Part shown: piece by piece, positions 32,373 through 37,736 of the stretch | Numbering within the stretch: the stretch's first letter is position 1 | Layout: every line of letters starts with the position of its first letter | Source: Salinisphaera sp. | GTDB taxonomy: Bacteria; Pseudomonadota; Gammaproteobacteria; Nevskiales; Salinisphaeraceae | Reading direction: 5' to 3' | Assembly (NCBI GenBank): GCA_027858915.1 | Contig: JAQIBT010000090.1 | Location: 1 to 37,736 of the forward strand | DNA: 37,736 nt | Translations under genes and position numbers: made by a program | The notes under the pieces: model-generated | Seen by the model: the letters and a program-made list of their open reading frames with translations, nothing else | Database searches by the model: none | What the model was told of the DNA's origin: nothing

Positions 32373-32449
32373 GCGCCCGTAGCTCAGCTGGATAGAGCGC
32401 TGGCCTCCGAAGCCAGAGGTCGCAGGTTCGACTCCTGCCGGGCGCACCA
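32373..32449 (+). tRNA. tRNA-Arg (anticodon CCG)
   Basis: This is a 77-base cloverleaf. The acceptor stem GCGCCCG pairs with CGGGCGC, the D-loop is AGCTCAGCTGGATAGAGC, the anticodon stem CTGGC/GCCAG closes a loop with anticodon CCG, and the T-arm reads CAGGTTCGACTCCTG. The discriminator A and CCA end are encoded. A TATCCT about 20 bases upstream may be the -10 box. The gene marks a sharp change from core genes to accessory genes, a common integration site. Confidence 0.97.
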
Positions 32450-32931
32450 ATAAGATCAGTTGCTTACGTCATCTCGGTTTCATCCCACTAAGCACTGAGA
32501 CCAAATTGAGACCATTCGGCGTTCGCCGCTTTTGGCCGCGCAGCTGTGCTACGACCCTTGGCCTGCGGGAGCGTGGCGCTGATTTGCGAGGGTCGATGCC
32601 GTGTTCTACACCCAGCTGAGCTTTCGGGTCGATCCCCGCTCGCGCGGGGAAGCCCGGGTACTCGTAACCAAGCCGTCTATTGCCGGGGGTCGATCCCCGC
32701 TCGCGCGGGGAAGCCGAATGCCGGGGGCTAGCCCTCTCTGATGCCGAAGAGCGCCCATTCATCCTCATTCCTCAACTGCTGTCTCTTGTTGTTCTGCTCA
32801 ACCCTATGTACTGGCCCCGATCCCTAGACACTCGTGGCCGTCACGACGATGCTTGTTCAAAGCTCTCGAGACTAACCCGTCGACATGGTTATGGTGGCGA
32901 TTCAAAAAAACGACGGATAGGCCCCGAGACT
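32450..32931. other. 482-bp gene-poor stretch after tRNA-Arg
   Basis: No supportable coding region is present. The stretch holds the two-repeat CRISPR remnant (32626-32715) and a short direct repeat of TGAGACCA at about 32488-32506. The first 170 bases after the tRNA might be a remnant of an integrated element, but no integrase motif could be read in any frame. Confidence 0.6.
32626..32715 (-). CRISPR. Minimal type I-E CRISPR array (two repeats, one spacer)
   Basis: Two identical 29-base repeats (32626-32654 and 32687-32715) flank one 32-base spacer, exactly the type I-E geometry. Their core is the GC hairpin CCCCGCTCGCGCGGGG. Comparison with known I-E repeats, which in crRNA sense end CGGGGATxxACC, places transcription on the minus strand, with any leader to the right. 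No further repeat is found one period either side and no cas gene is visible in the window. Confidence 0.85.
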
Positions 32932-33618
32932 TCAATCCGCCAATTCGCGCGCACGCTGTTTGAGAGCTTCAGCGAACTGATCGATGGCTTCGTAGGTTGA
33001 CAGTTCCGACATCGGTCGGGCCGAGGATACACAGCCGAGTGAGTGCTTGCCCAGATTTATAGGTTGCTCTGATATCCAGTCGTTCGCAGACCCAAGCTGT
33101 ATATAGCCATCGTAGGTCTCTCCGCATTCGAATGCTGCCCACGGATTAACGCTTGCATCGACTGCGCCATCTATCTGGTCCCATGTAAGCGTGGAGCCCC
33201 TCAAGTTGACAACGACACTTACCGACAACTCGCTCGTCGCACCCTCGGGCGATGGTGCTATTGACGCATTGGAAGAGAGCGTATTTAAGGGACCGTTTTC
33301 CGATGTAAAATCGCTATCCGCGTTGTGGCTAATGAAGATCGAGTAATCGCCAGACTGTGCCGGCATATCGAGGGGTTTGCTCGTGTACGTGAACTCCGAC
33401 CAAAGCAGCGGCAGGAAGGTGCTCCCATCCGAGTCGGTAACCGGGCACTTCCTTCGCGTCGGCGGAGGTCCACCCGCCGTGGGATCCCAGCTCCAATATG
33501 TCGGCGTATCAAACGCTTTTTTCAGTTTGTCGATGATTTGTAACAGCGCATTTTGGTAGCCGTAAATGAGTCGATATGCGTCGCGTACCGTGCGAATTGT
33601 TTGGTTCGAATTGTTCAT
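32932..33618 (-). CDS. Hypothetical protein, partner of the PD-(D/E)XK-like gene
   Basis: This 228-residue protein is not recognised. No signal peptide or membrane helix is seen. The N-terminal 35 residues look helical (TVRDAYRLIYGYQNALLQII), and a Pro-rich stretch with PPPTRRKCP follows. The middle resembles beta strands (SELSVSVVVNLRG, YDGYIQLGS), and a C-terminal helix reads AIDQFAEALKQRARELAD. It begins five bases after the stop of the nuclease-like gene on the same strand, so the two are probably co-translated. Function is unknown; an interaction with the nuclease is inferred from the arrangement only. Confidence 0.7.
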   Translation of the reverse strand: MNNSNQTIRTVRDAYRLIYGYQNALLQIIDKLKKAFDTPTYWSWDPTAGGPPPTRRKCPVTDSDGSTFLPLLWSEFTYTSKPLDMPAQSGDYSIFISHNADSDFTSENGPLNTLSSNASIAPSPEGATSELSVSVVVNLRGSTLTWDQIDGAVDASVNPWAAFECGETYDGYIQLGSANDWISEQPINLGKHSLGCVSSARPMSELSTYEAIDQFAEALKQRARELAD

Positions 33619-33623
33619 CTTCT

Positions 33624-34325
33624 TTATCCCAGTGAAGGCCAGAGAATCCCGAGTGACCGTTGTTTCCAGAGGTAGTCTTCGAGCCCACGTTCAATATCCG
33701 AGATCTGCTGTTTAGGCCTCACGCCGTGCAACGCAAGTGCCTTATCGATATCCGACAGTATGCGATGCAAATGATGGTGGTCGAGTCCGTACGAAAGCTC
33801 CGCTCGGGCGTCTGCGGCTGCCAGTCTGAGGCGGAACCACGACGTCGTCATGAGACCAGCCAAGCCCTCGATGTCGTCGAGCGATTCTTCTAAGCGACCG
33901 CTTACCAAAAGGCAATAGATCCGCCTATCACCGACTTCATTACGTAATGCTAGAACCTCGTTCTGAATCTGGTGGCGGGTTTGCAATTCGCGTTCATCTC
34001 TCCGCTTTGCTTCTACGATCAACTCGAATGTCGCGAAGCTCAACTGCACGTCAGGTTCGACTCGAGTGTCATCGGTTGCTAGCCGTGGCCAGAATTCGAT
34101 TTGAGTCAGACGCGGGCGCGCGCTCAAGCAACTATCGCTCTGGGCACCGTCAGCGGCTTGACTAAGAACTCTCCAAAGGAGATCAGTTGGGAGATACGAT
34201 AGTCGTGAGAAAACTGCCGCAGTTAAATGGTCCTCATGATCACGGTACGCCGCGATGGCACTGACCTGCTGGCCTTCATCGTCGATCCAGCGTGCCATCT
34301 TGCCGTGTTCGATCGCTTTCAACAT
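33624..34325 (-). CDS. Predicted PD-(D/E)XK-fold nuclease-like protein
   Basis: This 233-residue protein carries a candidate PD-(D/E)XK active site. Pro91-Asp92 is in RVEPDVQLS, and Glu105-x-Lys107 is in LIVEAKRRDE, at the expected hairpin distance. A Gln/Asn-rich helix follows (RHQIQNEVLALRNE), as in many members of the fold. The N-terminal segment EDHLTAAVFSRLSYLPTDLLW precedes it. Target and role are unknown. It is the first gene of a two-gene operon near a tRNA, a CRISPR remnant and a restriction gene, so a defence role is plausible. The nuclease call rests on the motif alone. Confidence 0.65.
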   Translation of the reverse strand: MLKAIEHGKMARWIDDEGQQVSAIAAYRDHEDHLTAAVFSRLSYLPTDLLWRVLSQAADGAQSDSCLSARPRLTQIEFWPRLATDDTRVEPDVQLSFATFELIVEAKRRDERELQTRHQIQNEVLALRNEVGDRRIYCLLVSGRLEESLDDIEGLAGLMTTSWFRLRLAAADARAELSYGLDHHHLHRILSDIDKALALHGVRPKQQISDIERGLEDYLWKQRSLGILWPSLG

Positions 34326-34705
34326 TCGTAGCCTCTGAACCTAATTTGACGAGAAATCTATGCGAATTCAGCTTCGTTAAGTGCTATCGGCGGCTACGGT
34401 TCGTTTCTGAATCTCGCTCGTTAAGCAAATAGAAATAATACGGCGGGAAAGACATTCGGTTAGCACGGTATTTCGTTATCGATGCCGGCGTAAAAAAGCC
34501 ATCACCACGTGCAGGCAGGGGCAAGGCGGAGCTTCGCGACTGCGCCAAGTGACCGTTGGATATAAGCGGTTTGTCATAAAAGCGCCAATGCGTTGGTGCT
34601 GTTATGTGTTAAATGTCGTTGGTGGCGTGACGCCATCCACAGACCTAGATTGCCTGGCACCGAACCCCTATCCATTTTTTTTGGGGGCGAGTACGCTCCG
34701 CATGG
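34326..34705. other. 380-bp intergenic region in the island
   Basis: No coding region is supported. It separates two minus-strand genes and should hold the promoter of the nuclease-like operon (right end near 34326) and the transcript end of the FtsZ-like gene (hairpin at 34576-34600). A second short palindrome, TGGCGTGACGCCA, lies at about 34623-34635. GTTAAGT- and GTTAAGC-type heptamers occur, but without the partner needed for an integron attC site. Confidence 0.5.
34576..34600 (-). terminator. Probable terminator of the FtsZ-like gene
   Basis: On the minus strand AGCACCAA-CGCA-TTGGCGCT forms an 8-bp stem with one G-T pair and runs into TTTTAT. It lies about 105 bases after the stop of the FtsZ-like gene. 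Confidence 0.5.
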
Positions 34706-35605
34706 TTACTCTGTATCGCTCGTTGTCGCATACGCGATCGTGCGGATTGTCACAATTCCCACGGTGAATCCTGCGGAATCCTCAACTGCTCGTTCTTTTA
34801 GCGTAACAAGTACGCCGGCGTTATCGAACGCGTGCGTCGCTGTTAGCCGCTCATTGAGATGTTGAAAATCGTCGATTCCTATGTAGGCACTACCGATCAG
34901 CAAAGCCAGTACGCCTTGAGCCCGCCAATCCGCCGAATAAATGCCCGTGGCATCGTTGATGACGTCCTGAATATCTTTCAGGCAGGCGCCATGCACGACG
35001 TGGCAATGTGCGATGCCCTCAATATCGAGAACCCGACGGATGTCCGCAAAGTCCGTCCCGATCATCCCGTGCCTGATAGTCGATGAAAGAAGTATCTCCA
35101 AGGCATTGTCAGCGGCTTTGAAATCATTACCCTCTCCGTGAGAATCGGCGCCTGGGAAAAGGGTGATATATGAACTCAACGTTGGACGAAGGGCTGTGAG
35201 TCGATCGGCATCGGCGGCATCCAGAACAACCGCGACCGTGGCTGGTCCAAAAGGCCCGAGCGCAGAAATTGCCGCCAACTCGCTCGCATGCCCAATCGCT
35301 ATGACCAGGTCCGGCCAAACGTTCGGATGATTAGGCGGGTCGACAAAGCGAAAGTCGGCTTCCCGATAGTCCCGGGCGAATCGCGTTAGCACAGCCTGCG
35401 CATCGGCGCCCAGTGCAAGCACCTGCACTCCGACGCACCCGCTTTCCGGTGTGAGTATTTCGTGAATACCGGATTTCTCAGAAAATTCGGCGCGGCGGCG
35501 AACCTCATCGTCGTCGTAGTAGTAACTGGATGTGGCGGCTGGTGTACCGACTCGAATGGCCTTTACCCAGACGGATCGCACGACAGGGGAAGAGGTGGTT
35601 ATCAT
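34706..35605 (-). CDS. FtsZ/tubulin-fold protein with degenerate nucleotide site
   Basis: This 299-residue protein has a second half that follows the order of FtsZ: a helix AADNALEILLSSTIRHGM, the T7-loop region IGTDFADIRRVLD, then GVLALLIGSAYIGIDDFQHL and AGVLVTLKERAVEDSAGFTVGIVTI, the C-terminal beta domain. In the T7 loop both Asp residues (185, 188) are kept, but the Asn is replaced by Gly183. The N-terminal half is short: where FtsZ has GGGGNA there is LGADAQAV (about 65-72), and where it has GGGTGTG there is IGHASEL (104-110). GTP binding is therefore doubtful. The first 55 residues (with YYYDDDEVRRR) match nothing I know. It stands alone, with no partner on its strand. It is clearly not the cell-division FtsZ. 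Confidence 0.7.
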   Translation of the reverse strand: MITTSSPVVRSVWVKAIRVGTPAATSSYYYDDDEVRRRAEFSEKSGIHEILTPESGCVGVQVLALGADAQAVLTRFARDYREADFRFVDPPNHPNVWPDLVIAIGHASELAAISALGPFGPATVAVVLDAADADRLTALRPTLSSYITLFPGADSHGEGNDFKAADNALEILLSSTIRHGMIGTDFADIRRVLDIEGIAHCHVVHGACLKDIQDVINDATGIYSADWRAQGVLALLIGSAYIGIDDFQHLNERLTATHAFDNAGVLVTLKERAVEDSAGFTVGIVTIRTIAYATTSDTE

Positions 35606-35754: not shown

Positions 35755-35995
35755 TTGACCTGCTCACCAGTGGCGATTATCAGCGTCTGCTGAAGACCAC
35801 AGCACGCTCACCTGCTCGATGAGCGCCGTCGGTCATTGCGGTGATAACGCGGGTTGCGAATGCCTTTTCGGCATGCTCAAGCGAGGGCGTGTCCATCACG
35901 TCAGATATCGCACGATGGATGTCGCTAAGTCGGACCTAGTTTGACTACATTGAGCGATTCCATAATCCTAGAATGCGGCGGCGCGTCGTTAAGCA
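35755..35995 (+). mobile_element. IS3-family transposase (orfB) remnant
   Basis: Three frames together give the C-terminus of an IS3-type DDE transposase: LLTSGDYQRLL, then DHSTLTCSMSAVGHCGDNAG followed by LFGMLKRGRVHHVRYRT, then FDYIERFHNPRMRRR. The final catalytic Glu of the DDE triad is replaced: the usual NAxxESFF appears as NAGCECLF. At least two frameshifts and the missing 5' portion show it is dead. No terminal inverted repeats could be identified. It fills most of the 461-bp gap between the FtsZ-like and Mrr-like genes. Confidence 0.75.
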
Positions 35996-36066: not shown

Positions 36067-37099
36067 ATGAAAGTATGGTTAGTTCGCGGAGGAAAGCACG
36101 GCGAAACCGAGGCACTTAGCCTTGATAATGGTGAGGCTGCGATAGGCTTTAGTGAGGTAGCAGGCGTCGGCCATGCTGGCTCTCGTGAAGATATCGCTAA
36201 AATGATTCGCTCCAACGATGCCGGGGCGCTGGATGGCGCTATCATCAACCGCTCTGCTCAGTTGTACGCCTTCGCTCATCGGATTGAAAAGGGCGACCTT
36301 ATCGTCATGCCGTTGAAAGGTAAGTCCAAGATCGCAATCGGCATTGCGGAAGCGGGCTACAAATACTTACCTGAGCGCCCCGAAGGTAAGCACTCCATAC
36401 AAGTGACTTGGAACGCTCCGGACGTTCCTCGTTCTTCTTTCAAGCAAGATTTGCTTCATTCGTTTGGCGCCTTCATGACGGTGTGCCAGATTAAGCGCAA
36501 TAACGCGCTTGCCCGCATCGAAACTGTGATGAAAGGCAAAGTTGACCCCGGTGATTCAACACTGGAAGTCGAACCGTCAGACGACAGCCAAGGGGCCATA
36601 ACGGGCACTGATCTAGAAGCTGCCATCAGCGACCAGATTAGCCGCCACATCCAGTCGCATTTTTCGGGGCACGGGTTGGCGCGATTGCTCGCAGCAATAC
36701 TCTCGGCCGACGGTTATAACACTAAGGTTTCGCCGCCCGGCCCGGATGGCGGTGTAGATATTCTGGCCGGGAAGGGATTTTTTGGGCCTTGATAGTCCAA
36801 AACTGGTAGTCCAAGTTAAATCTGGGACGGCGTCTTCGGATGTCGCCGTATATCGCAATTTGCAAGGCGCAATGCAGAGTTACAGTGCGGAGTTAGGTTT
36901 GCTTGTTTCGTGGGGTGGCTTTACCAAAAGTGCAGAATCTGAGGCGCGTACCAAGCATTTCCAGATTCGGCTATGGGATCAGTCCGATGTACTGTCAGCG
37001 TTGTTCCGGACTTACGATCGTTTCCCCGAGGAGATGAAAGCCGAGCTTCCTCTGACTCGCTCTTGGCTTTTAGTTCAGGCCGACGCGGAATCTGGATAG
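36067..37099 (+). pseudogene. Mrr-family restriction endonuclease, frameshifted
   Basis: The first frame (36067-36792) gives an N-terminal domain (MKVWLVRGGKHGETEALSL, GDLIVMPLKGKSKIAIG) and the start of an Mrr-type catalytic domain ending GPDGGVDILAGKGFFG, with the active-site Asp231. It then hits TGA. The frame one base further on continues GLDSPKLVVQVKSGTAS with the Gln-x-Lys half of the active site and runs to 37099. The shift falls on six Ts followed by three Gs (36778-36786); removing one base restores a protein of about 344 residues, a normal size for these type IV-like enzymes that cut modified DNA. It may be a true mutation, a phase-variable tract, or a sequencing error. Confidence 0.8.
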
Positions 37100-37583: not shown

Positions 37584-37736
37584 GGTTTCTCAGTGGGTTA
37601 AATTCCGGCTCTTGTGTAGTTGCTTGAGGTAATCATCCTGCGGCGGGATAGAGGGATAAGGGAGGTTCAAGGACAGCGGTCTGTCGAATTTTCAGTTTAA
37701 AGTACGCTTGATCGAGGAGCCCTCGGGCCCGTTTTC

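What the first reader, a model, noticed from the sequence alone, without database searches (positions are those of the whole stretch)
34706..35605. Orphan FtsZ-like protein that has lost the GTP-binding signatures
The C-terminal half follows FtsZ closely, including both Asp residues of the T7 loop, yet the glycine-rich T1 and T4 motifs are replaced and the N-terminal domain is shortened. It sits alone in a tRNA-linked island with restriction genes. A protein that keeps the activating loop but not the nucleotide pocket could cap or poison filaments of another FtsZ/tubulin, host or phage. That would be a plausible abortive-infection or division-control device. I know of no described system with this layout.
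Basis: partly seen in the sequence, partly recalled or inferred. Interest (0 to 1): 0.75.

Follow-up and report, generated by a model that had tools for sequence, protein, structure and literature searches.

The report
Pocketless FtsZ mimic beside defence nuclease
A gene in a mobile defence island encodes a look-alike of the bacterial cell-division protein FtsZ that lacks the GTP-binding motifs and sits next to a predicted anti-phage nuclease, so it may be a bait that phage division-blockers bind, setting off the nuclease.

Summary
The ORF is real (34706-35605, minus, 299 aa). Residues ~160-283 are FtsZ-like (BLASTP vs own FtsZ E 9e-9). Both T7-loop Asp are kept, the T7 Asn is Gly, and no T1/T4 motif or FtsZ tail exists. 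The N-terminal half shows no sequence similarity to FtsZ.

It is not alone. The next genes on its strand match PADLOC PDC-M15A (nuclease-like motif) and PDC-M15B. Among 606 complete ORFs of ten M15A loci two match FtsZ: this one and another, also directly upstream of M15A, in a genome of another class, with the same losses. Each scores highest with the FtsZ of its own host genus.

Best reading: a host-FtsZ-derived, non-polymerising bait or sensor for M15A/M15B, keeping the face that FtsZ inhibitors bind; T7 Gp0.4-FtsZ is a published immune trigger. Weak points: two cases, an IS30 remnant in one gap, an AU test that does not reject one origin, low-confidence models.

The parts
34706..35605 (-). 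FtsZ-like protein P0001, 299 aa, without GTP-binding signatures
34757..35122 (-). stretch encoding residues 162-283, the part with significant similarity to FtsZ (H7 region, T7, C-terminal domain)
35042..35059 (-). T7 (synergy) loop GTDFAD, residues 183-188: both Asp kept, Asn replaced by Gly
34326..34705 (-). 380-bp gap between the FtsZ-like gene and M15A; I recognised no gene in its open frames
33624..34325 (-). PDC-M15A protein P0002, 233 aa; residues E90-P-D92 and E105-x-K107 read as a PD-(D/E)XK nuclease site (motif recalled)
   Evidence: PADLOC PDLC04455 E 3.6e-37; invariant columns
32932..33618 (-). PDC-M15B protein P0003, 228 aa, function unknown
   Evidence: PADLOC PDLC04468 E 6e-14
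36067..36792 (+). Mrr-type restriction endonuclease (PADLOC PDC-S02), first part; the frame is broken near 36785
36782..37099 (+). second part of the same Mrr/PDC-S02 gene in another frame
35759..35941 (+). IS3-family transposase remnant upstream of the FtsZ-like gene
   Evidence: NCBIfam NF033516 E 7.1e-9, 35 bits against a cut-off of 160
32373..32449 (+). tRNA-Arg (CCG) at the chromosome side of the island

Best explanation
P0001 is a mimic derived from FtsZ of its own host lineage that has lost the GTP-binding motifs and so probably cannot polymerise by itself. It works with the adjoining M15A (nuclease-like) and M15B proteins as the sensing or bait part of an anti-phage module. Proposed steps: (1) FtsZ-related protein with C-terminal domain and T7 loop but no GTP motifs: shown by sequence. 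(2) Genetic link to an M15A-type gene: seen in two genomes of two classes. (3) Phage-encoded FtsZ blockers bind the exposed C-domain/T7 face of the mimic, which stays monomeric: inferred. (4) The occupied mimic releases or activates M15A, which cuts DNA and stops the infection: inferred.
For: FtsZ homology of the C-terminal half. No T1/T4 string and no FtsZ C-terminal tail. Adjacent genes match PDC-M15A/B. In genome G604 (same phylum, another class by the tool's label) the gene directly upstream of PDC-M15A is a second such protein, P0006: Pfam FtsZ_C E 2.7e-5, 24.8 bits against a cut-off of 27; phmmer vs PDB, 39 distinct sequences at E up to 0.1, all named FtsZ, best 1.1e-6; again no T1/T4 string and T7 GVDFND. 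Of 606 complete ORFs in ten M15A loci only these two match FtsZ. Of the eight whole genomes with M15A, six gave one FtsZ match, and G000 and G604 gave one more each, both times the M15A neighbour. Host kinship: P0001 scores 116.6 on average with 14 FtsZ of its own genus, 106 with 3 of its family, 99.5 with 2 of its order, 39.5-68.9 with other groups; P0006 scores 169 with 2 FtsZ of its own genus, 121.1 with 10 others of its family, 100.5 with the window's genus; shuffle control; tblastn trend. Published parallel: CapRel-Ebc is triggered by the T7 Gp0.4-FtsZ complex; Gp0.4 is predicted to bind the FtsZ C-terminal region at the synergy loop, similar to SulA and MciZ; presumed monomeric FtsZ variants support it (PMC13423816, abstract and passages).
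Against: Only two cases, one of them the starting point; in the other 8 of 10 M15A loci no ORF matches FtsZ. The gap in the G604 locus holds an IS30 transposase remnant, so that adjacency could come from insertion or deletion. Gaps of 380 and 346 bp argue against tight co-translation. The G604 gene after M15A matches no PDC-M15B model (weak hhalign E 0.0092). Each tree build puts the two mimics apart, but the AU test does not reject one common origin (p 0.333). [quoted passage not shown] No phage trigger, binding or nuclease activity is shown here. The N-terminal halves have no significant FtsZ similarity, and both models are of low confidence (mean pLDDT 48.0 and 48.9).
Confidence: 0.37

Rival explanations
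1. Filament cap or poison: the T7 face of P0001 docks on the GTP face of a terminal FtsZ subunit of the host or of a phage tubulin, perhaps even stimulating its GTP hydrolysis with the two Asp, and stops division as a stand-alone or infection-triggered inhibitor.
For: Both T7 Asp kept in P0001 and P0006 while T1/T4 strings are absent; similarity to the host's own FtsZ would also help docking to host FtsZ.
Against: The T7 Asn is Gly in both. Nothing tested shows docking. A constitutive poison of an essential protein would need control, and I recognised no antitoxin beside it; M15A/M15B would then be unexplained neighbours.
Confidence: 0.25
2. Unrelated passengers: the FtsZ-like gene and M15A/B both happen to sit in defence or mobile islands and have no joint function.
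For: IS remnants flank or separate the genes; gaps of 380 and 346 bp; 8 of 10 M15A loci have no FtsZ-like ORF; the neighbours of M15A/B vary.
Against: Same order, same strand and similar spacing in two classes, and no other extra FtsZ match in the eight M15A genomes (two of these are only 82% and 88% complete).
Confidence: 0.26
3. Decaying duplicate of ftsZ without function.
For: Similarity to the FtsZ of its own lineage; the island holds a broken Mrr gene and IS remnants.
Against: 299 codons without a stop; in a simulation of neutral decay to 30% identity 1 of 300 runs of 299 codons kept an open frame (13 of 300 for 121 codons). Coding-like GC by codon position. A second intact case, P0006.
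Confidence: 0.08

Closest known systems
FtsZ (bacterial cell division GTPase)
   Same: C-terminal domain, H7/T7 region, both T7 Asp; highest scores with FtsZ of the host's own genus
   Different: No T1 or T4 string, T7 Asn is Gly, no FtsZ tail, N-terminal half not recognisable by sequence, 299 aa
FtsZl1 and FtsZl2 (Makarova and Koonin 2010, PMC2875224; part 1 of 5 of the text read)
   Same: Diverged members of the FtsZ/tubulin superfamily beside new neighbours
   Different: According to the paper both keep the GGGTG(S/T)G loop, and FtsZl1 shows no similarity to known C-terminal domains; here the GTP loop is absent and the C-terminal domain is kept
PDC-M15A/PDC-M15B, a candidate phage defence pair in PADLOC
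   Same: The two genes downstream match these models
   Different: No PADLOC model matches P0001 or P0006, and 8 of 10 M15A loci have no FtsZ-like ORF. A search for 'PDC-M15' in the paper library found 0 papers
CapRel-Ebc with FtsZ-Gp0.4 as trigger (PMC13423816; abstract and passages)
   Same: FtsZ in a monomeric state, bound by a phage inhibitor at its C-terminal region and synergy loop, is the immune signal
   Different: CapRel uses the host's working FtsZ and is a fused toxin-antitoxin; here the island would carry its own FtsZ copy and a nuclease-like protein
SulA and MciZ type FtsZ inhibitors
   Same: Could act on FtsZ assembly
   Different: P0001 is itself FtsZ-derived; these inhibitors occlude the synergy-loop face of FtsZ (as told in PMC13423816)

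Membership tests
FtsZ | Sequence similarity in the C-terminal domain | tested here: met
   BLASTP E 9e-9; 0 of 2000 shuffles as high
FtsZ | T4 tubulin signature GGGTG(S/T)G | tested here: not met
   absent from P0001 and P0006, present in own FtsZ
FtsZ | T1 glycine-rich loop | tested here: not met
   no GGG..[NT] string in P0001 or P0006
FtsZ | T7 loop NxDxxD | tested here: inconclusive
   two Asp kept, Asn replaced by Gly
FtsZ | C-terminal conserved peptide that binds FtsA/ZipA | tested here: not met
   tail of own FtsZ has no counterpart in P0001 or P0006, read by eye; the role of the peptide is recalled
FtsZ | GTP binding and polymerisation | not testable with these tools
   needs purified protein
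FtsZ | FtsZ/tubulin fold of the whole protein | tested here: inconclusive
   AF2 model with FtsZ rows under the C-half only: pLDDT 48, pTM 0.39; the 50 Foldseek rows listed are all FtsZ, best E 3.3e-9, but TM 0.34-0.53 and rmsd 8-24 A, which the C-domain alone could give
FtsZl1/FtsZl2 | keeps the GGGTG(S/T)G GTP loop | tested here: not met
PDC-M15 | M15A and M15B genes side by side | tested here: met
PDC-M15 | protects against phage | not testable with these tools
   a candidate system in PADLOC; no experiment seen
PD-(D/E)XK nuclease (M15A) | E, PD and ExK active-site residues | tested here: met
   invariant in the 8 aligned M15A proteins (8 of the 10 loci, L041 and L044 not in the alignment); motif recalled
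PD-(D/E)XK nuclease (M15A) | match to a known nuclease family or structure | tested here: inconclusive
   Pfam: BsuBI_PstI_RE E 0.015 in 1 of 8 members; no nuclease among 7 PDB matches at E up to 1

The most novel reading that the evidence does not exclude
M15A/M15B is a bait-swapping immune module: islands capture a copy of a self-assembling host protein that phages attack, strip it of assembly, and wire it to the nuclease as a decoy. Two islands in two classes have separately made a GTP-site-less copy of their own host's FtsZ; on the conjugative plasmid CP061774.1 the gene 45 bp upstream of M15A is a lone homologue of the flagellar hook protein FlgE in an island that also bears BREX genes. 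This would be a bacterial counterpart of the integrated decoys of plant immunity (recalled).
Probability: 0.13. Interest if true: 0.93.

Novelty: new variant of a known kind. Interest (0 to 1): 0.66.

Why it matters
Several phages make FtsZ inhibitors, and one such inhibitor bound to FtsZ was recently reported to trigger an immune protein (PMC13423816). A defence island that carries its own crippled FtsZ beside a nuclease-like gene would be a purpose-built sensor for that kind of attack and can be tested directly. It also points to FtsZ-derived proteins that persist without GTP motifs, useful for asking what the T7 face can do alone.

Tried and rejected
Close homologues of P0001: none confirmed in the pattern scans of genome contigs and viral contigs (such scans reach close relatives only), none by tblastn in 72,556 plasmid and 50,697 phage records; in relatives only ftsZ genes answer (20 of 100 genomes at E up to 1e-3, query itself included, 3 of 369 at E up to 1e-4). 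P0006: none in viral contigs; in plasmids 7 weak records, two annotated ftsZ; one weak hit in an unannotated phage record from faecal samples, not followed. M15A: none confirmed in genome contigs or viral contigs, none in phages; plasmids gave two records in all (none).

A chance microcompartment match in PDB (E 0.024) was set aside. Decay of a duplicate was simulated and thought unlikely. I first expected one mobile family spreading with M15A; scores and trees favour separate host-like copies, but the AU test does not reject one origin, so this stays open. A fragment alignment for a better N-terminal model failed. A search with the plasmid's FlgE piece gave 181 plasmid records, many annotated FlgE, and no answer on whether the plasmid copy is ordinary; the best outside record has no gene annotation.

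Full report
What was checked. The frame exists exactly where stated: 34706-35605, minus strand, ATG to stop, 299 aa. The window is one whole contig of an unnamed 4.3-Mb genome in 169 contigs and ends at 37736, so the island is cut on that side. The same genome has a normal ftsZ on another contig (381 aa; T1, T4, T7 and tail present).

The protein. No library names it: 0 families in Pfam, NCBIfam, PHROGs and PADLOC at E up to 10, and phmmer against PDB lists no FtsZ. Direct comparison is clear: BLASTP to the own FtsZ gives 30% over 122 aa, E 9e-9. An HMM of 20 FtsZ proteins from the genus and relatives gives E 3.3e-8 in a database of 562 ORFs plus 2000 shuffles of the protein, whose best shuffle has E 0.12. 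The significant signal lies in residues about 160-283: the C-terminal half scores 32.1 bits (0 of 2000 shuffles as high), the N-terminal half -2.6 bits (500 of 2000 as high); for P0006 the values are 34.7 bits (0 of 2000) and 1.6 bits (55 of 2000). hhalign starts its local alignment of P0001 to FtsZ at residue 118. Both T7 Asp are present, the preceding Asn is Gly, and there is no T1- or T4-type glycine string and no FtsZ tail. By eye, residues 57-160 could run as in the FtsZ GTPase domain with a central stretch missing, but this has no statistical support.

Structure. An AlphaFold2 model built with FtsZ rows only under the C-terminal half has mean pLDDT 48 and pTM 0.39; its order of helices and strands agrees with FtsZ by eye. 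The 50 PDB rows that Foldseek lists are all FtsZ (E 3.3e-9 to 1e-7, TM 0.34-0.53, rmsd 8-24 A). At this confidence the result is supportive only, and since FtsZ rows were supplied for the C-half it is not independent there. The P0006 model is confident only in its C-terminal domain (about 189-282); the 50 rows listed are again FtsZ, with TM about 0.3.

It is not alone. The next two genes on the same strand, 33624-34325 and 32932-33618, match PADLOC PDC-M15A (E 3.6e-37) and PDC-M15B (E 6e-14). M15A keeps E, EPD and ExK in the 8 members aligned, the pattern of PD-(D/E)XK nucleases (recalled; not confirmed by Pfam or PDB).

Other M15A loci. PADLOC models found M15A in 4 of 398, 1 of 78, 2 of 385, 1 of 85, 4 of 369 and 2 of 194 genomes; these sets overlap and all belong to one phylum. 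Together that is 8 genomes including the window's, plus two plasmids, ten loci in all. Five are in or beside genes that I read as type I restriction genes (L027, L031, L040, L044, and L041 on a short contig; only L031 is annotated, the rest is my reading of translations). In three I saw no such genes next to M15A (L028, L030, L035). Two have an FtsZ-like gene: the window and G604.

The second mimic. In G604 (same phylum, another class by the tool's kinship label; I guess Zetaproteobacteria, no tool named it) the gene directly upstream of M15A is a 283-aa protein, P0006. It matches FtsZ_C in Pfam (E 2.7e-5, 24.8 bits against a cut-off of 27) and FtsZ chains in PDB (best E 1.1e-6). It too has no T1/T4 string and has T7 GVDFND, Asn replaced by Gly. 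P0001 and P0006 show no significant similarity to each other (BLASTP E 0.85; hhalign E 0.011 over 31 residues around T7). Of 606 complete ORFs of at least 60 aa in the ten loci, only these two match the FtsZ HMM (frames that run off a contig end were not counted). In the eight whole genomes with M15A six gave one FtsZ match each; G000 and G604 gave one more, the M15A neighbour in both (G604 and G303 are 88% and 82% complete). Against a tight unit: the gaps are 380 and 346 bp, the G604 gap contains the end of an IS30 transposase (E 3.1e-15), an IS3 remnant lies upstream of P0001, and G604's gene after M15A matches no PDC-M15B model (hhalign E 0.0092).

Where the mimics come from. Smith-Waterman scores of the C-terminal part against 38 FtsZ proteins: P0001 averages 116.6 with 14 of its own genus (own genome included, 108), 106 with 3 of its family, 99.5 with 2 of its order, 68.9 with 7 others, 46.7 and 39.5 with the G604 family (10 and 2). 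P0006 averages 169 with 2 of its own genus, 121.1 with 10 other members of its family (one badly cut row, L066, included), 100.5 with the window's genus. In 200 shuffles the differences are smaller (largest 26.2 against 71.1 for P0001, whose shuffles were scored on 5 of 14 and 6 of 12 rows only; largest 18.5 against 47.9 for P0006). tblastn shows the same trend (P0001: own genus 25.8-31.3 bits with the own FtsZ at 25, family 24.8-26.1, order at most 23.7; P0006: own genus 55.7-56.7, others of the family 29.4-41.7). In a 39-row tree P0001 groups with its genus and family FtsZ and P0006 with its genus FtsZ, each in 100% of 200 bootstrap trees, and the two mimics never join (the bootstrap had not fully settled). 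P0001 is a sister of the genus-plus-family FtsZ group, not nested in it. The mimics' branches are extremely long (9-10 changes per column), and an AU test does not reject holding them together (p 0.333). Separate origin from, or selection to resemble, the host's FtsZ is favoured, not proven. The GC of P0001 (55.6%, third position 57%) is like that of M15A/B and below that of the own ftsZ (61.0%, 70.9%), so a recent copy of the resident gene is unlikely.

How it most likely works. A copy of FtsZ without GTP motifs should not polymerise by itself, yet it keeps the face that inhibitors use. According to PMC13423816 (abstract and passages read), phage T7 Gp0.4 is predicted to bind the FtsZ C-terminal region including the synergy (T7) loop, similar to SulA and MciZ, and the Gp0.4-FtsZ complex activates CapRel-Ebc, with presumed monomeric FtsZ variants supporting it; other FtsZ inhibitors did not activate it. 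A dedicated, host-like FtsZ copy next to a nuclease-like gene is what one would expect of a built-in bait.

Known or new. Makarova and Koonin (PMC2875224, part 1 of 5 read) described FtsZl1 and FtsZl2, which keep the GTP loop; they also note that some FtsZ paralogues lack motifs known to be important. In the paper library I saw no description of an FtsZ-like partner of PDC-M15 or of an FtsZ without GTP motifs in a defence locus; searches: (ranked listings of at most 15 titles each; only the two papers named were opened).

Verdict. A real, intact, FtsZ-derived protein without GTP signatures, genetically linked to a predicted defence gene pair or its M15A part in two classes; function inferred. 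New variant of a known kind, interest 0.66.

Noticed in passing
L030:3880-5955 (plasmid CP061774.1, Ochrobactrum sp. MT180101): A lone flagellar hook protein FlgE homologue of about 691 aa (rod, D1, two D2 stretches and C-terminal Pfam domains; start placed by me) lies 45 bp upstream of M15A on the same strand of a conjugative plasmid, near BREX and toxin-antitoxin genes; no other flagellar gene is listed in the 49 kb viewed, in a gene table that is incomplete. The record annotates only its last 365 codons.
   Followed up: partly
window 32626-32654 and 32687-32715: Two identical 29-nt repeats 61 bp apart just after the tRNA-Arg, like a two-repeat type I-E CRISPR remnant (the likeness to I-E repeats is recalled).
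   Followed up: no
window 36067-37099: Mrr/PDC-S02 restriction gene is split into two frames near 36785.
   Followed up: partly
L044:4864-7396 and L031:4933-7513: M15A/B among type I restriction genes together with a DUF5655/NucS_C-like gene (L044) or a Fic gene (L031).
   Followed up: partly
control genomes of the genome search: The M15A model PDLC04456 also answers in the archaeon Methanosarcina acetivorans and the M15B model PDLC04468 in Corynebacterium glutamicum; these loci were not seen.
   Followed up: no
L029:5341-5409: A short open frame of 22 codons with a likely ribosome site (by eye) ends on the start codon of M15A in G604.
   Followed up: no
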